Source: Candidatus Hydrogenedentes bacterium CG07_land_8_20_14_0_80_42_17
Lineage (GTDB): Bacteria; UBA8481
Direction of reading: 5' to 3'
NCBI GenBank assembly: GCA_002780065.1
Contig: PEWQ01000198.1
Location: 1 to 10,582 of the forward strand
DNA: 10,582 nucleotides
Positions 1,581-8,648 of this stretch are shown one piece after another. The stretch's first letter is position 1, and every line of letters begins with the position of its first letter. A program made the translations under genes and the position numbers. The notes under the pieces were generated by a model that searched no databases, was not told the origin of the DNA, and saw nothing but the letters and a program-made list of their open reading frames with translations.

Positions 1581-4500
1581 CTAATTACCTCGACCTAGAG
1601 ACTTTTGTTTCATCTCATTGAGAACACGTCTGTAATCATGAGGCATTATCTTCTTCAATTTCTTAATCGATTCATCCCACATATCGATAATTCGTTTTGC
1701 AACTGAACTATTTGTGAATTGCAAATGCTTTTCTACCAACTTGCGGACAGTTCGAATATCTTCGTCATCCATCGCTTCAAAATCGACCATCTCTTTGTTG
1801 CAATTTTTTGCAAATGAATTGTTCTCATCAAATACGTACGCAATGCCTCCCGACATACCTGCCGCGAAATTTTTTCCTGTCGAACCGAGCACGACAACGA
1901 CTCCGCCTGTCATGTATTCGCAACCGTGGTCGCCAACACCTTCGACAACTGCATGCGCTCCTGAATTCCGCACGGCGAATCGTTCTCCGGCGAGCCCACG
2001 AATATAACATTCGCCTGAGGTCGCACCATACAGGCAGACATTGCCTATAATAATATTTTCTTCGGGAATATATCCTGCATCTTCAGGCGGCTTTACAATT
2101 ATGATTCCGCCTGAAAGTCCCTTCCCGAGATAATCGTTGGATTCACCTGTTAGCTCCAGCGTAAGCCCTTTTGCCGCCCATGCTCCGAATGACTGTCCTG
2201 CCGAACCTTCGAACTGAAGATGAATAGTGTGATCTGGCAATCCGGAGTTCCCGCAACGCTTGGCAATTTCACCCGATAACATAGCTCCGATTGTCCGGTT
2301 TACATTGCGAATCTTAAATGACGCTTTTACGGGTTTATTGCCGTTGAGTGCGGGCTTGCAAAGTTCGATAAGTTTCAAATCAAGAATATCATCTATCATG
2401 TGATCTTGAGGAGCAATGCATCTAGTCGCAATAGTTTTTGGAACGCGTTGACGGTAGAGCAATGCGGAAAGATCCACGTATTTTGCTTTCCAATGATCGA
2501 TAGCGTCATCTGCTTTCAGATGATCGACTCTGCCAATCATTTCGTTGACTGTTCGAAATCCGAGATCAGCCATAATTCGTCTTAATTCCTCGGCGATGAA
2601 GAAAAAGAAATTTACAACGTGTTCGGGTTTGCCTGCGAATTTTTTGCGAAGCTCAGGATCTTGTGTGGCGACTCCGACAGGACATGTATTCAGATGACAT
2701 TTTCTCATCATGATACAGCCCATCGAGATCAATGGAATCGTCGCAAAACCGAATTCTTCCGCGCCTAGTAATGCCGCTATAGCTACATCTCTTCCTGTAC
2801 ACAGCTTGCCGTCGGTTTGAACAATTATTCGGCCGCGCAAATCGTTTTTGACGAGAACCTGATGGGTCTCGGCAAGCCCGATTTCCCATGGAATTCCTGC
2901 ATGCTTAATCGACGAGATCGGAGAAGCTCCGGTGCCGCCTTCGTATCCGCTAATCAAAACTACATCTGCTTTTGCCTTCGATACTCCCGCCGCTACAGTG
3001 CCTACTCCGTTTTCAGAAACTAATTTGACGCTGATTCTGGCGCGCGGATTTACATTCTTGAGATCAAAAATAAGTTGAGCTAAATCTTCGATAGAGTAGA
3101 TATCGTGATGCGGCGGAGGGGAGATGAGCGCAACTCCAGGAGTAGAATGACGCACTCGAGCGATATCTTCGCTTACCTTGTGACCGGGCAACTGCCCGCC
3201 TTCGCCTGGTTTTGCGCCTTGAGCGATTTTAATCTGAAGTTCGTCTGCATTAATTAAATATTCGGTTGTGACTCCGAATCTGCCTGATGCAACTTGTTTG
3301 ATGGACGATCTCAAAGAATCTCCGTTTTCCAAAAGTTTGAACCGCAAAGGATCTTCTCCGCCTTCACCTGTATTCGATCTTCCGCCAAGCCGGTTCATCG
3401 CGGCGGCAAGAGCTTGATGAGCTTCTTTTGAAATCGAGCCGAATGACATTGCGCCGGTTGCAAAGCGTTTTACGATATCTTTTGCTGGCTCGATTTCATC
3501 GAGCTGAATCGGATTTCGCTTTGTAAATTTCAATAGAGATCTTAATGTAAGATTCTTCTGAGCAGTTTCGTTGACGTAATGCGAATACTCTTCGAACGAC
3601 TCAAATGAGCCTGTTCTGACAGCGTGCTGAAGTTTCGAGATAGTGTCCGGATCGATGAGATGTTTCTCACCATCTCTGCGCCACTGATATTGACCTCCGA
3701 TGTCCAGCCGCGGAGTTGTAGAGAAATCGCGCGGATATGCGCGCTCATGCCTCAGCCGCGCCTCATCTGCGATTACGTCCAGCCCGATGCCTCCGATTCT
3801 TGACGGAGTCTTAGTAAAGAATTCGTCGATTACTTCTTGATTAATTCCAAGCGCTTCAAATATTTGAGCTCCGTGATAGGAAAAAATAGTTGAAATTCCC
3901 ATCTTGGACATTACCTTCAATAGACCTTTATTTATCGCTTTGATATAGTTCTTCTCGGCATTTTCATAATTGATTGATTCAGAGAAGAACTTCGATTCAA
4001 CCATATCTGAGAGCGTATCGAAGACCAGATACGGATTGACTGCGCTTGCGCCGTAACCTATCAAAAGCGCGGTATGGTGCACTTCGCGCGGCTCGCCGCT
4101 CTCGACAATGATTCCGACTTTAGTGCGACTGCCCTCGCGGACAAGATGCTGATGTACTGCTCCGACTGCAAGCAGAGAAGGAATCGGTGCTCGGAATGCA
4201 TCAACCTGACGGTCGGATAGAATGAGAATGGAATATCCTGCTCTGACTGCATCTGAGGCGCGCTGGCATAATTCGTTCAGCGCATGACGCAAACGCACAC
4301 CTCCCTCTTCAGCATGAAAAATTGTCGGAAGAGTTATTGCTCTGAAGTGCTTTATCGAAAAGTGTCGGATTCGTTCGAGCTCGTTGTTTGTAAGAATCGG
4401 GTGTGGGAGTTCGATTTGATGGCACAACCTTGGTTCCTCTTTCAAAAAATTTCCTTCTCCTCCGACGTAAACTGATAAAGACATTACAAGCTTTTCACGT

Positions 4501-6152
4501 ATAGGATCGATTGGAGGATTTGTCACCTGAGCAAAATTCTGTTTGAAATAATTGAAGAGAAGCTGTGGGTGGTCGGAGAGCACCGCAGGAGGAGTATCGG
4601 TTCCCATCGAGCCTACCGGCTCTTCACCTTTTTCAGCTATAGGTCCGAGAATAAATTTCAAGTCTTCAACCGTATATCCGAACAACTGCTGTTTCTCGAG
4701 AAGTGTCGAACGAGAGAGTCTTTGCACCGGAGGCGGCTCGCCTAGATCTTGAAGACTGATCTTGTTCTCTGCGACCCACTGCTTGTATGGTTTTTGTTTT
4801 GAAATTGTCTCTTTCAATTCTTCATCGTTGATAATTCTCTGTTCGACTGTATCGACGAGCAGTATTCGGCCGGGCTGTAGTCTGCCTTTTGAAATAATTT
4901 CGGATTCGGGAATTTCCAGAACTCCGGCTTCGGATGCAAGAACAACAAGACCGCTCTTCGTAATCTTGTAGCGCGCCGGCCTCAACCCGTTTCTGTCAAG
5001 CATCGCGCCTATAGCTCTGCCGTCGCTGAATGCAACGCACGCAGGCCCGTCCCATGGCTCCATCATCGCCGCATGGTATTCGTAAAAACCGCGTCTGTCA
5101 GAATCCATTGACTCGTCATTCTCCCACGCTTCAGGTATCAGCATCATGGCGGCATGAGGAAGAGATCTTCCGGTGAGTAATAGAAATTCCAGAGCGTTGT
5201 CGAGCATTGCCGAGTCACTGCCCATCGGAAGCACAATAGGTGAAATTTTCTTGATGTCTTCTCCGAATAGTTCGCTTTCCAGCATCGATTCTCTTGCGCT
5301 CATCCAATTAATGTTACCCTTCAAGGTATTAATCTCTCCGTTATGGCAGAGATACCTAAACGGATGAGAGAGATCCCATGTTGGGAAAGTGTTGGTGCTG
5401 TACCTTTGATGCACCATTGCAATTGCGCTCGTGAAGTCGGGGTCTGATAGATCGAGAAAATACGGCTTTATCTGCTGAGCAATAAGCATTCCTTTGTAAA
5501 CGACTGTTCGGGTTGAAAATGATGGAATGTAGAAATAGTGGAATGCATTCGGCAACTGCCGTCTTATTTCAGATTGAATTCTTTTTCTGACTACATAGAG
5601 TTTTCGCTCGAACGCGTCTTGACTCATTGAGTCTTGACTCATTGAGTCTTGACTCATTGCAGAGCTCGTAGCCTTTACAAAAACCTGCTTTATTCGTGGC
5701 TCGAGGTCCTGAGCGAATTCACCGATTACTTGAGAATTTGCCGGCACATTTCGCCAACCTAATAGTGTTAGACCTTCTTCTTCAATGACCTCTTCGATAA
5801 TGCCTTCGCAAAAATGTCTGTCAGTTGGAAATTGCGGAAGAAAGAACATTCCGATTCCGTATTGACCTATGGGCGGAAGATCAAATCCATGTTCGCCAGA
5901 AATGCCGTTTGCTTCAGAGCATACCTTTCTGAAAAAATCGTCGGGGATTTGAACCATAATGCCGGCTCCGTCGCCTGTTCTTGGATCGCATCCGCAAGCT
6001 CCGCGATGAGTCAGATTCTCTACGATTTCAATTCCCTTTTCGACAATGTCGTGGGACTTGCGGCCGTACATGTCGACAAGAAATCCGACGCCGCACGAAC
6101 CTTTCGCCGCATTCGGATCGTATAATCCTTCTTTTTTCCAACGACTTTTCAT
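1581..6152 (-). CDS. gltB: Glutamate synthase large (alpha) subunit, GltB
   Basis: This is the catalytic subunit of GOGAT, which hydrolyses glutamine and channels the ammonia to 2-oxoglutarate at an FMN site. Starting at 6152 the protein has 1523 residues, normal for the family. Cys20 (CGVGF) should become the N-terminal nucleophile of the class II glutaminase after removal of a 19-residue propeptide. Further glutaminase motifs are HQRYSTNTFPTW (248-259), HNGEINTLKGN (270-280), GSDSAMLDN (311-319) and DRNGLRPARY (386-395). The FMN/synthase domain spans roughly 880-1260 and includes TGEGGED near 929. The 3Fe-4S ligands are C1146, C1152 and C1157 with the expected C-x5-C-x4-C spacing. The C-terminal GXGXG beta-helix domain spans about 1280-1450. 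I chose ATG 6152 over the upstream in-frame ATG 6170 because GAGAAGG (6158-6164) precedes it by 5 bases, whereas 6170 has no ribosome-binding site. The only oddity is a repeat expansion at residues 166-179. Confidence 0.97.
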   Translation of the reverse strand: MKSRWKKEGLYDPNAAKGSCGVGFLVDMYGRKSHDIVEKGIEIVENLTHRGACGCDPRTGDGAGIMVQIPDDFFRKVCSEANGISGEHGFDLPPIGQYGIGMFFLPQFPTDRHFCEGIIEEVIEEEGLTLLGWRNVPANSQVIGEFAQDLEPRIKQVFVKATSSAMSQDSMSQDSMSQDAFERKLYVVRKRIQSEIRRQLPNAFHYFYIPSFSTRTVVYKGMLIAQQIKPYFLDLSDPDFTSAIAMVHQRYSTNTFPTWDLSHPFRYLCHNGEINTLKGNINWMSARESMLESELFGEDIKKISPIVLPMGSDSAMLDNALEFLLLTGRSLPHAAMMLIPEAWENDESMDSDRRGFYEYHAAMMEPWDGPACVAFSDGRAIGAMLDRNGLRPARYKITKSGLVVLASEAGVLEIPESEIISKGRLQPGRILLVDTVEQRIINDEELKETISKQKPYKQWVAENKISLQDLGEPPPVQRLSRSTLLEKQQLFGYTVEDLKFILGPIAEKGEEPVGSMGTDTPPAVLSDHPQLLFNYFKQNFAQVTNPPIDPIREKLVMSLSVYVGGEGNFLKEEPRLCHQIELPHPILTNNELERIRHFSIKHFRAITLPTIFHAEEGGVRLRHALNELCQRASDAVRAGYSILILSDRQVDAFRAPIPSLLAVGAVHQHLVREGSRTKVGIIVESGEPREVHHTALLIGYGASAVNPYLVFDTLSDMVESKFFSESINYENAEKNYIKAINKGLLKVMSKMGISTIFSYHGAQIFEALGINQEVIDEFFTKTPSRIGGIGLDVIADEARLRHERAYPRDFSTTPRLDIGGQYQWRRDGEKHLIDPDTISKLQHAVRTGSFESFEEYSHYVNETAQKNLTLRSLLKFTKRNPIQLDEIEPAKDIVKRFATGAMSFGSISKEAHQALAAAMNRLGGRSNTGEGGEDPLRFKLLENGDSLRSSIKQVASGRFGVTTEYLINADELQIKIAQGAKPGEGGQLPGHKVSEDIARVRHSTPGVALISPPPHHDIYSIEDLAQLIFDLKNVNPRARISVKLVSENGVGTVAAGVSKAKADVVLISGYEGGTGASPISSIKHAGIPWEIGLAETHQVLVKNDLRGRIIVQTDGKLCTGRDVAIAALLGAEEFGFATIPLISMGCIMMRKCHLNTCPVGVATQDPELRKKFAGKPEHVVNFFFFIAEELRRIMADLGFRTVNEMIGRVDHLKADDAIDHWKAKYVDLSALLYRQRVPKTIATRCIAPQDHMIDDILDLKLIELCKPALNGNKPVKASFKIRNVNRTIGAMLSGEIAKRCGNSGLPDHTIHLQFEGSAGQSFGAWAAKGLTLELTGESNDYLGKGLSGGIIIVKPPEDAGYIPEENIIIGNVCLYGATSGECYIRGLAGERFAVRNSGAHAVVEGVGDHGCEYMTGGVVVVLGSTGKNFAAGMSGGIAYVFDENNSFAKNCNKEMVDFEAMDDEDIRTVRKLVEKHLQFTNSSVAKRIIDMWDESIKKLKKIMPHDYRRVLNEMKQKSLGRGN
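5616..5659 (-). repeat. 15-bp in-frame tandem repeat inside gltB (MSQDS x ~3)
   Basis: A 15-base unit, gtcttgactcattga on the plus strand, occurs 2.9 times with no mismatch: 5616-5630, 5631-5645 and 5646-5659. It encodes MSQDS-MSQDS-MSQD at GltB residues 166-179. This falls between the conserved EPRIKQVFV and DAFERKLYVVRK segments of the glutaminase domain. As I recall the family, these segments are usually separated by fewer residues, so one unit would be about the normal length. Because the unit is a multiple of three, copy-number change would not break the frame. Confidence 0.9.
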
Positions 6153-6157
6153 TTCAA

Positions 6158-6164
6158 CCTTCTC
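6158..6164 (-). promoter_or_regulatory. gltB ribosome-binding site deciding start 6152
   Basis: On the minus strand GAGAAGG is followed by TTGAA and then ATG at 6152. The spacing is good for a Shine-Dalgarno site. It lies inside the open frame that could extend to ATG 6170, which has no such site, so it favours the shorter GltB start. Confidence 0.7.
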
Positions 6165-6172
6165 TTGCATTT

Positions 6173-6200: not shown

Positions 6201-6228
6201 ATTGTATCGATTTCGTACTGCTTTGCAA
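6201..6228 (-). promoter_or_regulatory. Candidate gltB promoter (sigma-70-like)
   Basis: On the minus strand, TTGCAA (6223-6228) is followed by a 16-base spacer and TACAAT (6201-6206). These match TTGACA in four positions and TATAAT in five. Transcription would start near 6194, giving a leader of about 42 bases to ATG 6152. The -35 hexamer lies inside the left copy of the 58-bp repeat. The call rests on consensus matching only. Confidence 0.45.
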
Positions 6229-6230
6229 TG

Positions 6231-6254
6231 AATTATGAAAATAATTATGAAATA
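6231..6254 (+). repeat. Tandem 12-bp motif AATTATGAAAAT / AATTATGAAATA
   Basis: Two adjacent 12-base units share their first ten bases, AATTATGAAA. The same pair occurs at 7344-7367 in the right copy. The units overlap or lie just upstream of the -35 region of the rhuM promoter candidate, a usual place for a repressor or activator site. One turn of helix (about 12 bases) separates equivalent bases. The bound protein is unknown; RhuM itself is one candidate by inference only. Confidence 0.5.
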
Positions 6255-6273
6255 CGCGGCCTTATGGTATGAT
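6245..6273 (+). promoter_or_regulatory. Candidate rhuM promoter with extended -10
   Basis: TTATGA (6245-6250), a 17-base spacer and TATGAT (6268-6273) form a sigma-70-like promoter. The -35 match is weak. It is offset by TG at 6265-6266, one base before the -10, which makes an extended -10 element. Transcription would begin near 6280, just ahead of the GGAAGGAG site of rhuM. It lies wholly inside the left repeat. Confidence 0.55.
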
Positions 6274-6282
6274 TTATTTAGT

Positions 6283-6290
6283 GGAAGGAG
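6283..6290 (+). promoter_or_regulatory. rhuM ribosome-binding site deciding start GTG 6298
   Basis: GGAAGGAG is followed by a seven-base spacer and GTG at 6298. The in-frame ATG codons further upstream (6235 and 6247) lie within the promoter-like repeat and have no such site. This places the true start outside the repeat. Confidence 0.8.
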
Positions 6291-6297
6291 AAACAAA

Positions 6298-7314
6298 GTG
6301 AGCGGCGACAAAAAAAATATAATCATTTACAACACGGTTGACGGCAAAGCCTCTGTTTCTTTATATGCCAAAGACGGCATGGTTTGGATGAACCAGAATC
6401 AGATCGCCGAACTTTTTGCCACCTCGGTTCCGAATATCAGCATGCACGTCTCTGATATACTGAAAGAAGGGGAATTGGAGCTAAATTCAGTTGTTAAGGA
6501 TTACTTAACTACTGCCGCTGACGGCAAACAATACAACGTCACTTATTATGCGCTGGGCATGATCCTGGCGCTCGGTTTTCGGGTGCGGAGCAAGCGGGGA
6601 ACCCAGTTTCGTATCTGGGCCAATCGCAACCTGAAGGAATACATGGTCAAAGGCTTTGTGATGGATGATGAGCGGTTAAAAAATCCCGACGGCCGCCCCG
6701 ACTATTTTGACGAACTGCTGGAACGCATTCGGGATATCAGGGCTTCCGAGAAGCGCTTTTACCAGAAAGTCCGAGACCTTTTTGCTCTCACCAGCGATTA
6801 TGATCCAACAGACAAAGCCACGCAGATGTTTTTTGCCGAAACACAAAACAAACTGCTCCATGCCGTCACCGGCAAAACAGCTGCAGAAATAATCCTTTCA
6901 CGCGCGGATGCGTCAAAGAAAAATATGGCGCTTACCTCGTGGAAGGGATCTATAGTTCGCAAACAGGATATTTTTATCGCCAAGAATTATCTCAGTGAAG
7001 ATGAGATAGATACCTTAAACCGACTGGTCGTCATCTTTCTTGAAACAGCCGAACTACGCGCCAAAAAACGTATGGACTTCACTATGTCATTTTGGAAAGA
7101 AAATGTGGACCGTATTTTGGAATTTAACGATAAAATGGTTCTCACTGGTAAAGGCTCGATCTCCAATGCTGAAATGGAACGAAAAGTCAGAGAAATTTAT
7201 TCCGAATTTGATTACAGGAGAAAAGCCTATGAAGCGGATTTGGCGGACAAACAGGATCTTCAGGAAATCGAGGATATCATAAAAAAGCAGAATAAAAGTC
7301 TGCCAAAAACGTAA
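6298..7314 (+). CDS. rhuM: RhuM family protein (virulence_RhuM)
   Basis: This is a complete 338-residue member of the RhuM family, named after a gene in Salmonella pathogenicity island 3. Members are widespread on mobile DNA and beside type I restriction-modification loci, and their biochemical role is unsettled. Residues about 27-60 (MVWMNQNQIAELFATSVPNI onward) look like a helix-turn-helix DNA-binding segment. The family hallmark RSKRGTQFRIWANRNLKEYM lies near 97-116, followed by GFVMDDERLKNPDGR. Further conserved blocks are SEKRFYQKVRDLFALTSDYD (150-169), FFAETQNKLLHAVTGKTAAE (178-197) and TSWKGSIVRKQDIFIAKNYL (213-232). The C-terminus (about 300-335) is charged and probably coiled. No signal peptide or membrane segment is seen, so it should be cytoplasmic. 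GTG 6298 is chosen for its strong ribosome-binding site; the open frame runs back to 6235, but that part is promoter-like repeat. The gene sits alone between 58-bp direct repeats, with no restriction genes in the window. Transfer is likely; DNA-binding is inferred. Confidence 0.92.
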   Translation: MSGDKKNIIIYNTVDGKASVSLYAKDGMVWMNQNQIAELFATSVPNISMHVSDILKEGELELNSVVKDYLTTAADGKQYNVTYYALGMILALGFRVRSKRGTQFRIWANRNLKEYMVKGFVMDDERLKNPDGRPDYFDELLERIRDIRASEKRFYQKVRDLFALTSDYDPTDKATQMFFAETQNKLLHAVTGKTAAEIILSRADASKKNMALTSWKGSIVRKQDIFIAKNYLSEDEIDTLNRLVVIFLETAELRAKKRMDFTMSFWKENVDRILEFNDKMVLTGKGSISNAEMERKVREIYSEFDYRRKAYEADLADKQDLQEIEDIIKKQNKSLPKT

Positions 7315-7343
7315 GAAAACGAATTGGTATATGCTTTGCAATG

Positions 7344-7367
7344 AATTATGAAAATAATTATGAAATA
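7344..7367 (+). repeat. Tandem 12-bp motif, second occurrence
   Basis: This is the same pair of 12-base units as at 6231-6254, here upstream of the kinase gene. If the motif is an operator, rhuM and the kinase operon would share a regulator. Confidence 0.5.
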
Positions 7368-7386
7368 CGCGGCCTTATGGTATGAT
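7358..7386 (+). promoter_or_regulatory. Candidate promoter of the kinase-FecR operon
   Basis: It has the same elements as the rhuM promoter candidate: TTATGA (7358-7363), a 17-base spacer, and TATGAT (7381-7386) with an extended TG. Transcription would start near 7393, leaving a leader of about 17 bases before ATG 7410. Confidence 0.5.
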
Positions 7387-7409
7387 TTACTCATGGATCA
7401 TTACTTACA

Positions 7410-8648
7410 ATGCTTATAGAAGACGAAAAAAATAAAATATTAAAAGCTGATAAGCTTTTTTCTCTAATCTTGAAAGAAATTAATACTGGTTTAACTCCTA
7501 ATGATGTTCTGGACAAGATTTATGAAACGTTTCGAGAAGTTATACCTTACGACAGAATGGGATGCGCTCTAATTGATGATAAAAACGAAGTTGTGACCTC
7601 AAAGTGGAATCGCGCAGATTATCAAAAAAAGTTTATTTTACACGGTTATTCAGCTTTTCTGAATGGAACGAGCCTTAAGAATATTGTTGATAGCGGTAAT
7701 CCGAGAATAATAAATGATCTCGAAGAATATTTTTCCAAGCATCCTGACTCCAAATCGACTCAATTGATTTTGAAGGAAGGAATCCGATCGAGTTTAACAT
7801 GTCCTCTTGTTTCGATGAACGGGCCTGTCGGGTTTTTGTTCTTTTCGAGCAAAGAGAAAGAGACTTATAAAAATGAGCATGTCGAAATTTATATGACAAT
7901 TGCCGATGAAGTTTCGGTCATAATTGAGAAATCACGTCTGCTTGAAAAAAATATGGAACTGAATGAACTCAAGAATAGGTTTATCGGTATGGCGGCTCAC
8001 GATTTGAGAAACCCTTTGTTTATAATCTCGAGCTATCTATCTATGATAAGACGCGGCAAGTTCGGAAACTTGTCTCCGAAGTTGGAAGAAAAATTGGAAC
8101 TTATTCATGAGACCGCAACTCATATGCAGGACTTGGTAGAAAATATTCTGGATGTAAATATCATTGAGTCTGGAGAGATGAAACTTAATTTAGAACTATT
8201 ATCAATCGCTGAAATATTCAATGAGAAGTGCGGAGAGCAGGAATTATTTGCAATAGAAAAGTCGATAGAAATTGTTCGGGATTTTGAAGAAAAAATTCCA
8301 AATGTGATGATTGACAGAAGTAGAATCGGTCAGGCGATAGAAAATCTTGTCTCGAATGCGCTAAAGTATTCTTACTCAGGCTCCAAAATATTTTGTTGTG
8401 TCAGGCATGAGGATAATTATATTAAAGTTAGTGTACAAAATAAAGGACAGGAAATTCCTGAAGCTGATAGGAATAAGCTTTTTCAGAATTTCGGTAAGAC
8501 GAGTGTTAGACCTACAGGCGGTGAAAAGAGCATTGGACTAGGTCTTGCAATAGTGAAGAAGATAGTGGAAAGTCACGGAGGAACGGTTGGATTCAAGAGT
8601 AACAAGATCGAGAACGAATTCTATTTTCTCTTGCCGTGTAAAGATTAG
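7410..8648 (+). CDS. Soluble GAF-domain sensor histidine kinase
   Basis: This is a 412-residue cytoplasmic sensor kinase. Residues about 15-175 resemble a GAF domain (LFSLILKEINTGLTPNDVLD ... VIPYDRMGCALID ... SSLTCPLV) that could bind a small ligand or chromophore. The phospho-acceptor H-box is FIGMAAHDLRNPL with H197. The N-box has N312 in QAIENLVSNALKY. The G1 box reads NKGQEIP (344-350) instead of the usual D-x-G-x-G. The G2 box GLGL is at 376-379. Autophosphorylation is likely but the G1 change deserves a test. No transmembrane segment or receiver domain is present, and no response regulator lies in the window, so its partner is elsewhere. ATG 7410 is the only early start because a TGA at 7383 closes the frame upstream. 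It has no clear ribosome-binding site. A FecR-domain gene follows at 12 bases, suggesting an operon. The signal sensed is unknown. Confidence 0.92.
   Translation: MLIEDEKNKILKADKLFSLILKEINTGLTPNDVLDKIYETFREVIPYDRMGCALIDDKNEVVTSKWNRADYQKKFILHGYSAFLNGTSLKNIVDSGNPRIINDLEEYFSKHPDSKSTQLILKEGIRSSLTCPLVSMNGPVGFLFFSSKEKETYKNEHVEIYMTIADEVSVIIEKSRLLEKNMELNELKNRFIGMAAHDLRNPLFIISSYLSMIRRGKFGNLSPKLEEKLELIHETATHMQDLVENILDVNIIESGEMKLNLELLSIAEIFNEKCGEQELFAIEKSIEIVRDFEEKIPNVMIDRSRIGQAIENLVSNALKYSYSGSKIFCCVRHEDNYIKVSVQNKGQEIPEADRNKLFQNFGKTSVRPTGGEKSIGLGLAIVKKIVESHGGTVGFKSNKIENEFYFLLPCKD

What the first reader, a model, noticed from the sequence alone, without database searches (positions are those of the whole stretch)
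6219..7389. One-gene rhuM cassette between perfect 58-bp direct repeats
Two identical 58-base non-coding repeats bracket a single rhuM gene at a period of exactly 1113 bp, inside what would otherwise be the divergent promoter region of gltB and a histidine kinase. The unit carries no recombinase and has no terminal inverted repeats, and the repeats are too long for a standard target duplication. RhuM genes are known from mobile and restriction-linked loci. A minimal recombinase-free RhuM unit with long direct repeats is not something I recognise as described. It could be a passive cassette moved by an enzyme encoded elsewhere, or by homologous recombination.
Basis: partly seen in the sequence, partly recalled or inferred. 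Interest (0 to 1): 0.75.

Follow-up and report, generated by a model that had tools for sequence, protein, structure and literature searches.

The report
rhuM gene inserted with duplicated target
A single suspected phage-defence gene (rhuM) that once sat beside a restriction-modification enzyme gene has landed next to a sensor-kinase gene, flanked by two identical 58-base copies of the landing site; many other rhuM genes carry similar flanking duplications, so this is a new case of a known but poorly understood way for genes to move without a transposase.

Summary
In detail: two identical 58-bp repeats (6219-6276, 7332-7389) bracket one rhuM gene. They are the only copies in the source genome, and no recombinase gene was found in the window. 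The repeat is not a cassette-borne attachment site. The closest rhuM relative, in another phylum (88.5% DNA identity), matches only 6281-7324, almost exactly the stretch between the repeats. The 17 bp before the rhuM start correspond to the 3' end of an Eco57I-type restriction-modification methylase gene that precedes rhuM in that relative. Across 152 distinct rhuM loci, 26 (17%) have flanking direct duplications of about 20-450 bp. These are unrelated to each other (host gene ends, a tRNA, a promoter region), against 7/351 control genes (P=3e-9). Congeneric genomes have one copy of the duplicated stretch where the rhuM carrier has two (tRNA-Ser, 10 of 10 genomes; dinB, 5 of 5). [quoted passage not shown] In ten other loci the two flanking copies differ mainly at third codon positions, so one copy probably arrived with the incoming DNA. 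The joining mechanism, and an empty site for this window, remain untested.

The parts
6219..6276 (.). left copy of the 58-bp direct repeat (duplicated target)
   Evidence: identical to 7332-7389; only two copies in the genome
6281..7324 (+). transferred unit: the stretch homologous to rhuM loci in other phyla (88.5% to L055)
   Evidence: blastn match of L055 to window 6281-7324 and nothing beyond
6281..6297 (+). remnant of the 3' end of an Eco57I/TaqI_C-type restriction-modification methylase gene, now serving as leader and ribosome-binding site of rhuM
   Evidence: in L055 the aligned bases are the last codons of a PF07669+PF12950 gene whose stop overlaps the rhuM GTG
6298..7314 (+). rhuM (PF13310 Virulence_RhuM; best PADLOC match PDC-S05, candidate single-gene defence)
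7325..7331 (.). 7 bp between the end of homology and the right repeat (junction filler or donor DNA)
7332..7389 (.). right copy of the 58-bp direct repeat, upstream of the kinase gene (presumed native copy)
   Evidence: nativeness inferred
7410..8648 (+). GAF domain sensor histidine kinase, native neighbour on the right
1581..6170 (-). gltB, glutamate synthase large subunit, native neighbour on the left

Best explanation
The unit is a foreign rhuM gene with no recognisable promoter of its own in the transferred stretch. It was cut out, imprecisely, of a restriction-modification operon and inserted between gltB and the kinase gene. The insertion duplicated 58 bp of the landing site, so one copy now precedes rhuM and one still precedes the kinase. 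[quoted passage not shown] No recombinase acts at fixed ends; the DNA was probably joined by illegitimate recombination. Two variants of the joining step fit: fill-in or template switching at a staggered break, or one homologous anchor plus one illegitimate join. Shown: the repeats, the limits of the unit, the restriction-modification remnant, the recurrence at other rhuM loci, and single-copy sites in relatives of two other carriers. Inferred: that the 58 bp carry the kinase promoter, that a single copy preceded insertion here, and the joining chemistry.
For: Homology to the nearest relative runs from 6281 to 7324, 4 bp and 7 bp inside the repeats. The left edge keeps the 3' end of an Eco57I/TaqI_C methylase gene. 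Other free-standing rhuM units keep ragged remnants of hsdM 3' ends and hsdS 5' ends: L062, L063, L070, L085, L087. Close rhuM pairs (88-95% DNA identity) in unrelated places share at most about 140 bp of flank on either side. 26/152 rhuM loci have flanking duplications against 7/351 control ORFs from the same regions, P=3e-9; 22/152 after removing four with another possible cause, P=2e-7. The duplicated sequences share no core. In Flavobacterium, the carrier L133 has two tRNA-Ser(GGA) genes around rhuM and 10 of 10 congeneric genomes have one. In the genus of L184, dinB is single in 5 of 5 relatives and double around rhuM. Published precedent for restriction-modification genes: PMC3031569, PMC1643837.
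Against: No close relative of this genome is held, so no empty site was seen for the window itself. 83% of rhuM loci show no detectable flanking duplication, including a rhuM variant at the same Flavobacterium spot with one tRNA (L305). At ten other loci the two copies differ mostly at third codon positions (23/18/74), which argues that one copy came with the insert rather than arising as a plain target duplication. Short-read assembly of a metagenome bin could in principle misplace a 58-bp repeat.
Confidence: 0.72

Rival explanations
1. Passive circle: rhuM plus one copy of the repeat circulates as excised DNA, excises by homologous recombination between the repeats, and re-enters any chromosome with the same 58 bp by a single crossover.
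For: The geometry is that of a single-crossover (Campbell) integration. Diverged flanking copies with identical tracts at one end (44 bp in L070, over 80 bp in L184, 71 bp in L133) fit a crossover in the identical tract. A circle model was proposed for flanking repeats around transposed Arabidopsis genes (PMC2869330).
Against: It does not explain how rhuM first reached so many unrelated targets, because each locus has a different repeat. No second copy or solo repeat exists in this genome. 58 bp is short for homologous recombination.
Confidence: 0.2
2. Site-specific cassette: the repeats are attL/attR of an integrase acting in trans.
For: tRNA and gene 3' ends, favoured integrase targets, occur among the duplicated sequences.
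Against: No common core among 26 repeats; lengths vary from 19 to about 450 bp; closely related rhuM genes use different targets; unit ends are ragged; no recombinase found in the window.
Confidence: 0.04
3. RhuM itself is the mobility enzyme (nuclease, transposase or homing-type enzyme) of a one-gene element.
For: Only rhuM is inside the unit; the N-terminal region has helix-turn-helix-like secondary structure, and L133 shows a weak Bro-N match below the Pfam cut-off; flanking duplications are frequent.
Against: No known nuclease or recombinase family match. The structure model is of low confidence (pLDDT 67) and has no significant PDB match, so fold evidence is absent rather than negative. 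No conserved ends. YhcG and Fic controls (2/34) are too few to show that the effect is specific to rhuM (P=0.12).
Confidence: 0.06
4. Assembly artefact or local promoter duplication unrelated to rhuM mobility.
For: The source is a fragmented bin (207 contigs, 86.9% complete), and reads could not be inspected.
Against: Homology to other phyla ends 4 and 7 bp inside the repeats, which a random duplication or misjoin would not predict; the same layout recurs at 25 other rhuM loci.
Confidence: 0.06

Closest known systems
Insertion with long target duplication of restriction-modification genes (Nobusato et al. 2000, Helicobacter pylori; Furuta et al. 2010), as cited in PMC1643837 and PMC3031569
   Same: Gene block inserted between long, variable direct duplications of the target; no transposase of its own; linked to restriction-modification genes
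   Different: Here a single rhuM gene without methylase or nuclease genes; seen across several phyla; copies at many loci show donor-recipient divergence
Homology-facilitated illegitimate recombination (transformable bacteria; invoked for Vibrio T6SS gene arrays, PMC5361080)
   Same: One homologous anchor plus one illegitimate join can leave a second, diverged gene end beside the insert
   Different: For the window no donor homology beyond rhuM is visible, and the copies are identical
Transposed Arabidopsis genes with flanking repeats (PMC2869330)
   Same: Non-transposon genes flanked by host-derived direct repeats at a similar excess over controls (17.5% against 5.9%)
   Different: Eukaryote; intrachromosomal movement; no horizontal transfer
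PDC-S05 (PADLOC candidate single-gene defence family)
   Same: The window RhuM matches its models (best E=9.8e-145)
   Different: Defence activity is a candidate assignment and was not tested

Membership tests
Insertion with long target duplication | Direct duplication of tens to hundreds of bp flanking an insert | tested here: met
   58/58 bp
Insertion with long target duplication | Insert is foreign DNA whose ends lie at the duplication | tested here: met
   homology to L055 covers 6281-7324 only
Insertion with long target duplication | Empty site with a single copy in a close relative of this genome | not testable with these tools
   no genome of the same family held; met for L133 (10/10) and L184 (5/5)
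Insertion with long target duplication | Both copies derive from the target rather than from the donor | tested here: inconclusive
   identical in the window; at ten other loci third-codon excess suggests one copy is donor-derived
Insertion with long target duplication | Link to restriction-modification genes | tested here: met
   methylase remnant at the left edge
Transposon or insertion sequence | Terminal inverted repeats and own transposase | tested here: not met
Transposon or insertion sequence | Fixed short target duplication | tested here: not met
   19 to about 450 bp across loci
Integrase/att or integron cassette | Common att core at different insertions | tested here: not met
RhuM family (PF13310) | Profile match over the full domain | tested here: met
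   profile positions 1-251 of 252
PDC-S05 candidate defence gene | Anti-phage activity | not testable with these tools
   only sequence match

The most novel reading that the evidence does not exclude
rhuM is a one-gene element with its own insertion process that repeatedly leaves restriction-modification operons and enters unrelated sites with long target duplications, with RhuM (or breaks it provokes) driving the event.
Probability: 0.12. Interest if true: 0.8.

Novelty: new member of a known kind. Interest (0 to 1): 0.5.

Why it matters
How single defence genes spread across phyla without transposases is an open question. rhuM gives a countable data set: units with ragged restriction-modification remnants, duplicated targets, and single-copy sites in relatives. 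The third-codon signature offers a way to separate true target duplication from donor-carried homology, which earlier reports of long target duplication left open (my reading). The tRNA-Ser spot in Flavobacterium, with interchangeable one-gene inserts, is a natural test bed.

Tried and rejected
Solo repeat copies in the own genome: none. Repeat core in viral contigs: none. rhuM relatives in viral contigs: none confirmed. Empty site for the window: no same-family genome held. E. coli rhuM lies beside the selC tRNA and is often a fragment; not informative for this unit. A shared core among flanking repeats: rejected. RhuM fold: low-confidence model, no PDB match at E<=0.001. Four automated hits were discounted in the strict count: L202 (similar RHFYEYE motifs of hsdM end and hsdS start), L060 (second rhuM paralogue), L081 (two four-helix-bundle-like genes), L205 (larger dnaQ-region duplication). 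L189: the only close congener with the locus, G404, shares the insertion and its duplication, so there was no empty site. YhcG (2/19) and Fic (0/15) controls were too small to decide specificity. The full text of Nobusato 2000 and Furuta 2010 is not held; they are cited through other papers.

Full report
Observation. The two repeats are exact (58/58, spacing 1113 bp) and are the only copies in the own genome, a 207-contig, 86.9% complete assembly. Between them lies only rhuM (PF13310; best PADLOC family PDC-S05), with a probable GTG start at 6298. gltB and a GAF-histidine kinase flank the unit. No recombinase was found among the window's genes searched.

Limits of the unit. A scan of GTDB genomes found rhuM relatives of 90-92% protein identity in a Desulfotomaculum and a Desulfobacterales bin and about 80% in Bacteroidota and others. 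The best DNA match, L055 (88.5%), covers window 6281-7324 and stops there on both sides, 4 bp and 7 bp inside the repeats. In L055 and L056 rhuM follows the end of a gene for a restriction-modification methylase (Eco57I PF07669 and TaqI_C PF12950 in L055), whose stop codon in L055 overlaps the rhuM GTG. The window keeps the last 17 bp of that gene before the GTG (GTGGAAGGAGAAACAAA), now the rhuM leader. Other free-standing units keep similar ragged remnants: L062 and L063 the end of hsdM and the first bases of hsdS, L070 41 bp of hsdS fused to a radical-SAM (lipA-like) gene fragment, L085 and L087 about 75-80 bp of hsdS. L066 shows rhuM directly followed by an intact hsdS start. rhuM has therefore left restriction-modification operons several times, with imprecise ends (inference from these edges).

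Recurrence. Among 152 distinct rhuM loci with enough flank, 26 have a direct duplication across the gene by one automated rule. This includes the window. The same rule gives 7 of 351 for ORFs of 150-500 aa away from rhuM in the same regions; P=3e-9, or 2e-7 after dropping four hits with other possible causes. Those four I judged by hand. The duplicated sequences are unrelated: gene 5' ends (L160, L189), gene 3' ends (L070, L104, L131, L184, L213), a tRNA (L133), the intergenic stretch here. No core is shared. Two other families gave 2/34, too few to call the effect specific to rhuM (P=0.12).

Single-copy sites in relatives. In Flavobacterium the carrier L133 has two tRNA-Ser(GGA) genes (87/88 identical) around rhuM; ten congeneric genomes have one at the same LysR-tRNA place. 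Seven of them carry another one-gene insert there (by reading of the predicted proteins: a KilA-N-like protein, a RAYT-like transposase, or a RhuM variant) and three carry none of these. In the genus of L184, dinB is single in five relatives and double around rhuM in L184; one relative, L312, keeps a 51-bp rhuM remnant after dinB. These are not plain pre-insertion sites: in L133 the right tRNA copy is followed by sequence different from that after the left copy, and in L184 the right dinB copy has an internal deletion.

Nature of the duplication. At ten loci where the copies differ and lie in coding sequence, the differences fall 23/18/74 on codon positions 1/2/3 (P=1e-11), although one copy is only a gene end. 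The reading frame was taken as the open frame in each case. The copies thus diverged as parts of working genes, most simply in two different genomes, so one copy came with the insert. In the window the copies are identical, which fits either a true target duplication or a donor of the same species.

Mechanism. [quoted passage not shown] pylori and elsewhere (Nobusato 2000, Furuta 2010, as cited in PMC1643837 and PMC3031569). The joining step is inferred: illegitimate recombination, with or without one homologous anchor (compare PMC5361080). A circle moved by homologous recombination (compare PMC2869330) is the main rival. A site-specific cassette is disfavoured. RhuM as its own mobility enzyme is not excluded: the structure model was poor.

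Verdict. The kind of event is known, and the rhuM case is new as far as the searched library shows. Interest 0.5.

Noticed in passing
L300-L309, tRNA-Ser(GGA) locus in ten Flavobacterium genomes: A one-gene insertion spot just after the tRNA terminator: KilA-N-like (L300, L306), RAYT-like transposase (L301, L303, L304, L309) or RhuM variant (L305); L302, L307 and L308 have none of these and a different terminator.
   Followed up: partly
L312:2742-2792: A 51-bp, 98% identical rhuM remnant directly after dinB in a genome without the rest of rhuM at that place, suggesting loss of a former insertion.
   Followed up: no
L238:10435-11484: A YhcG-like (DUF1016) gene near rhuM with a 28-bp direct repeat covering its own start and recurring after its end, like the rhuM layouts.
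   Followed up: no
E. coli, e.g. L135:3997-4158: Most complete E. coli genomes (3956 of 5426) have a DNA match to rhuM; in C600 it is an annotated rhuM fragment beside the selC tRNA, where ExPEC XM (L137) has a full gene.
   Followed up: partly
window 5616-5662: A short in-frame tandem repeat (TTGACTCATTGAGTC units) inside gltB, giving the peptide repeat MSQDS.
   Followed up: no
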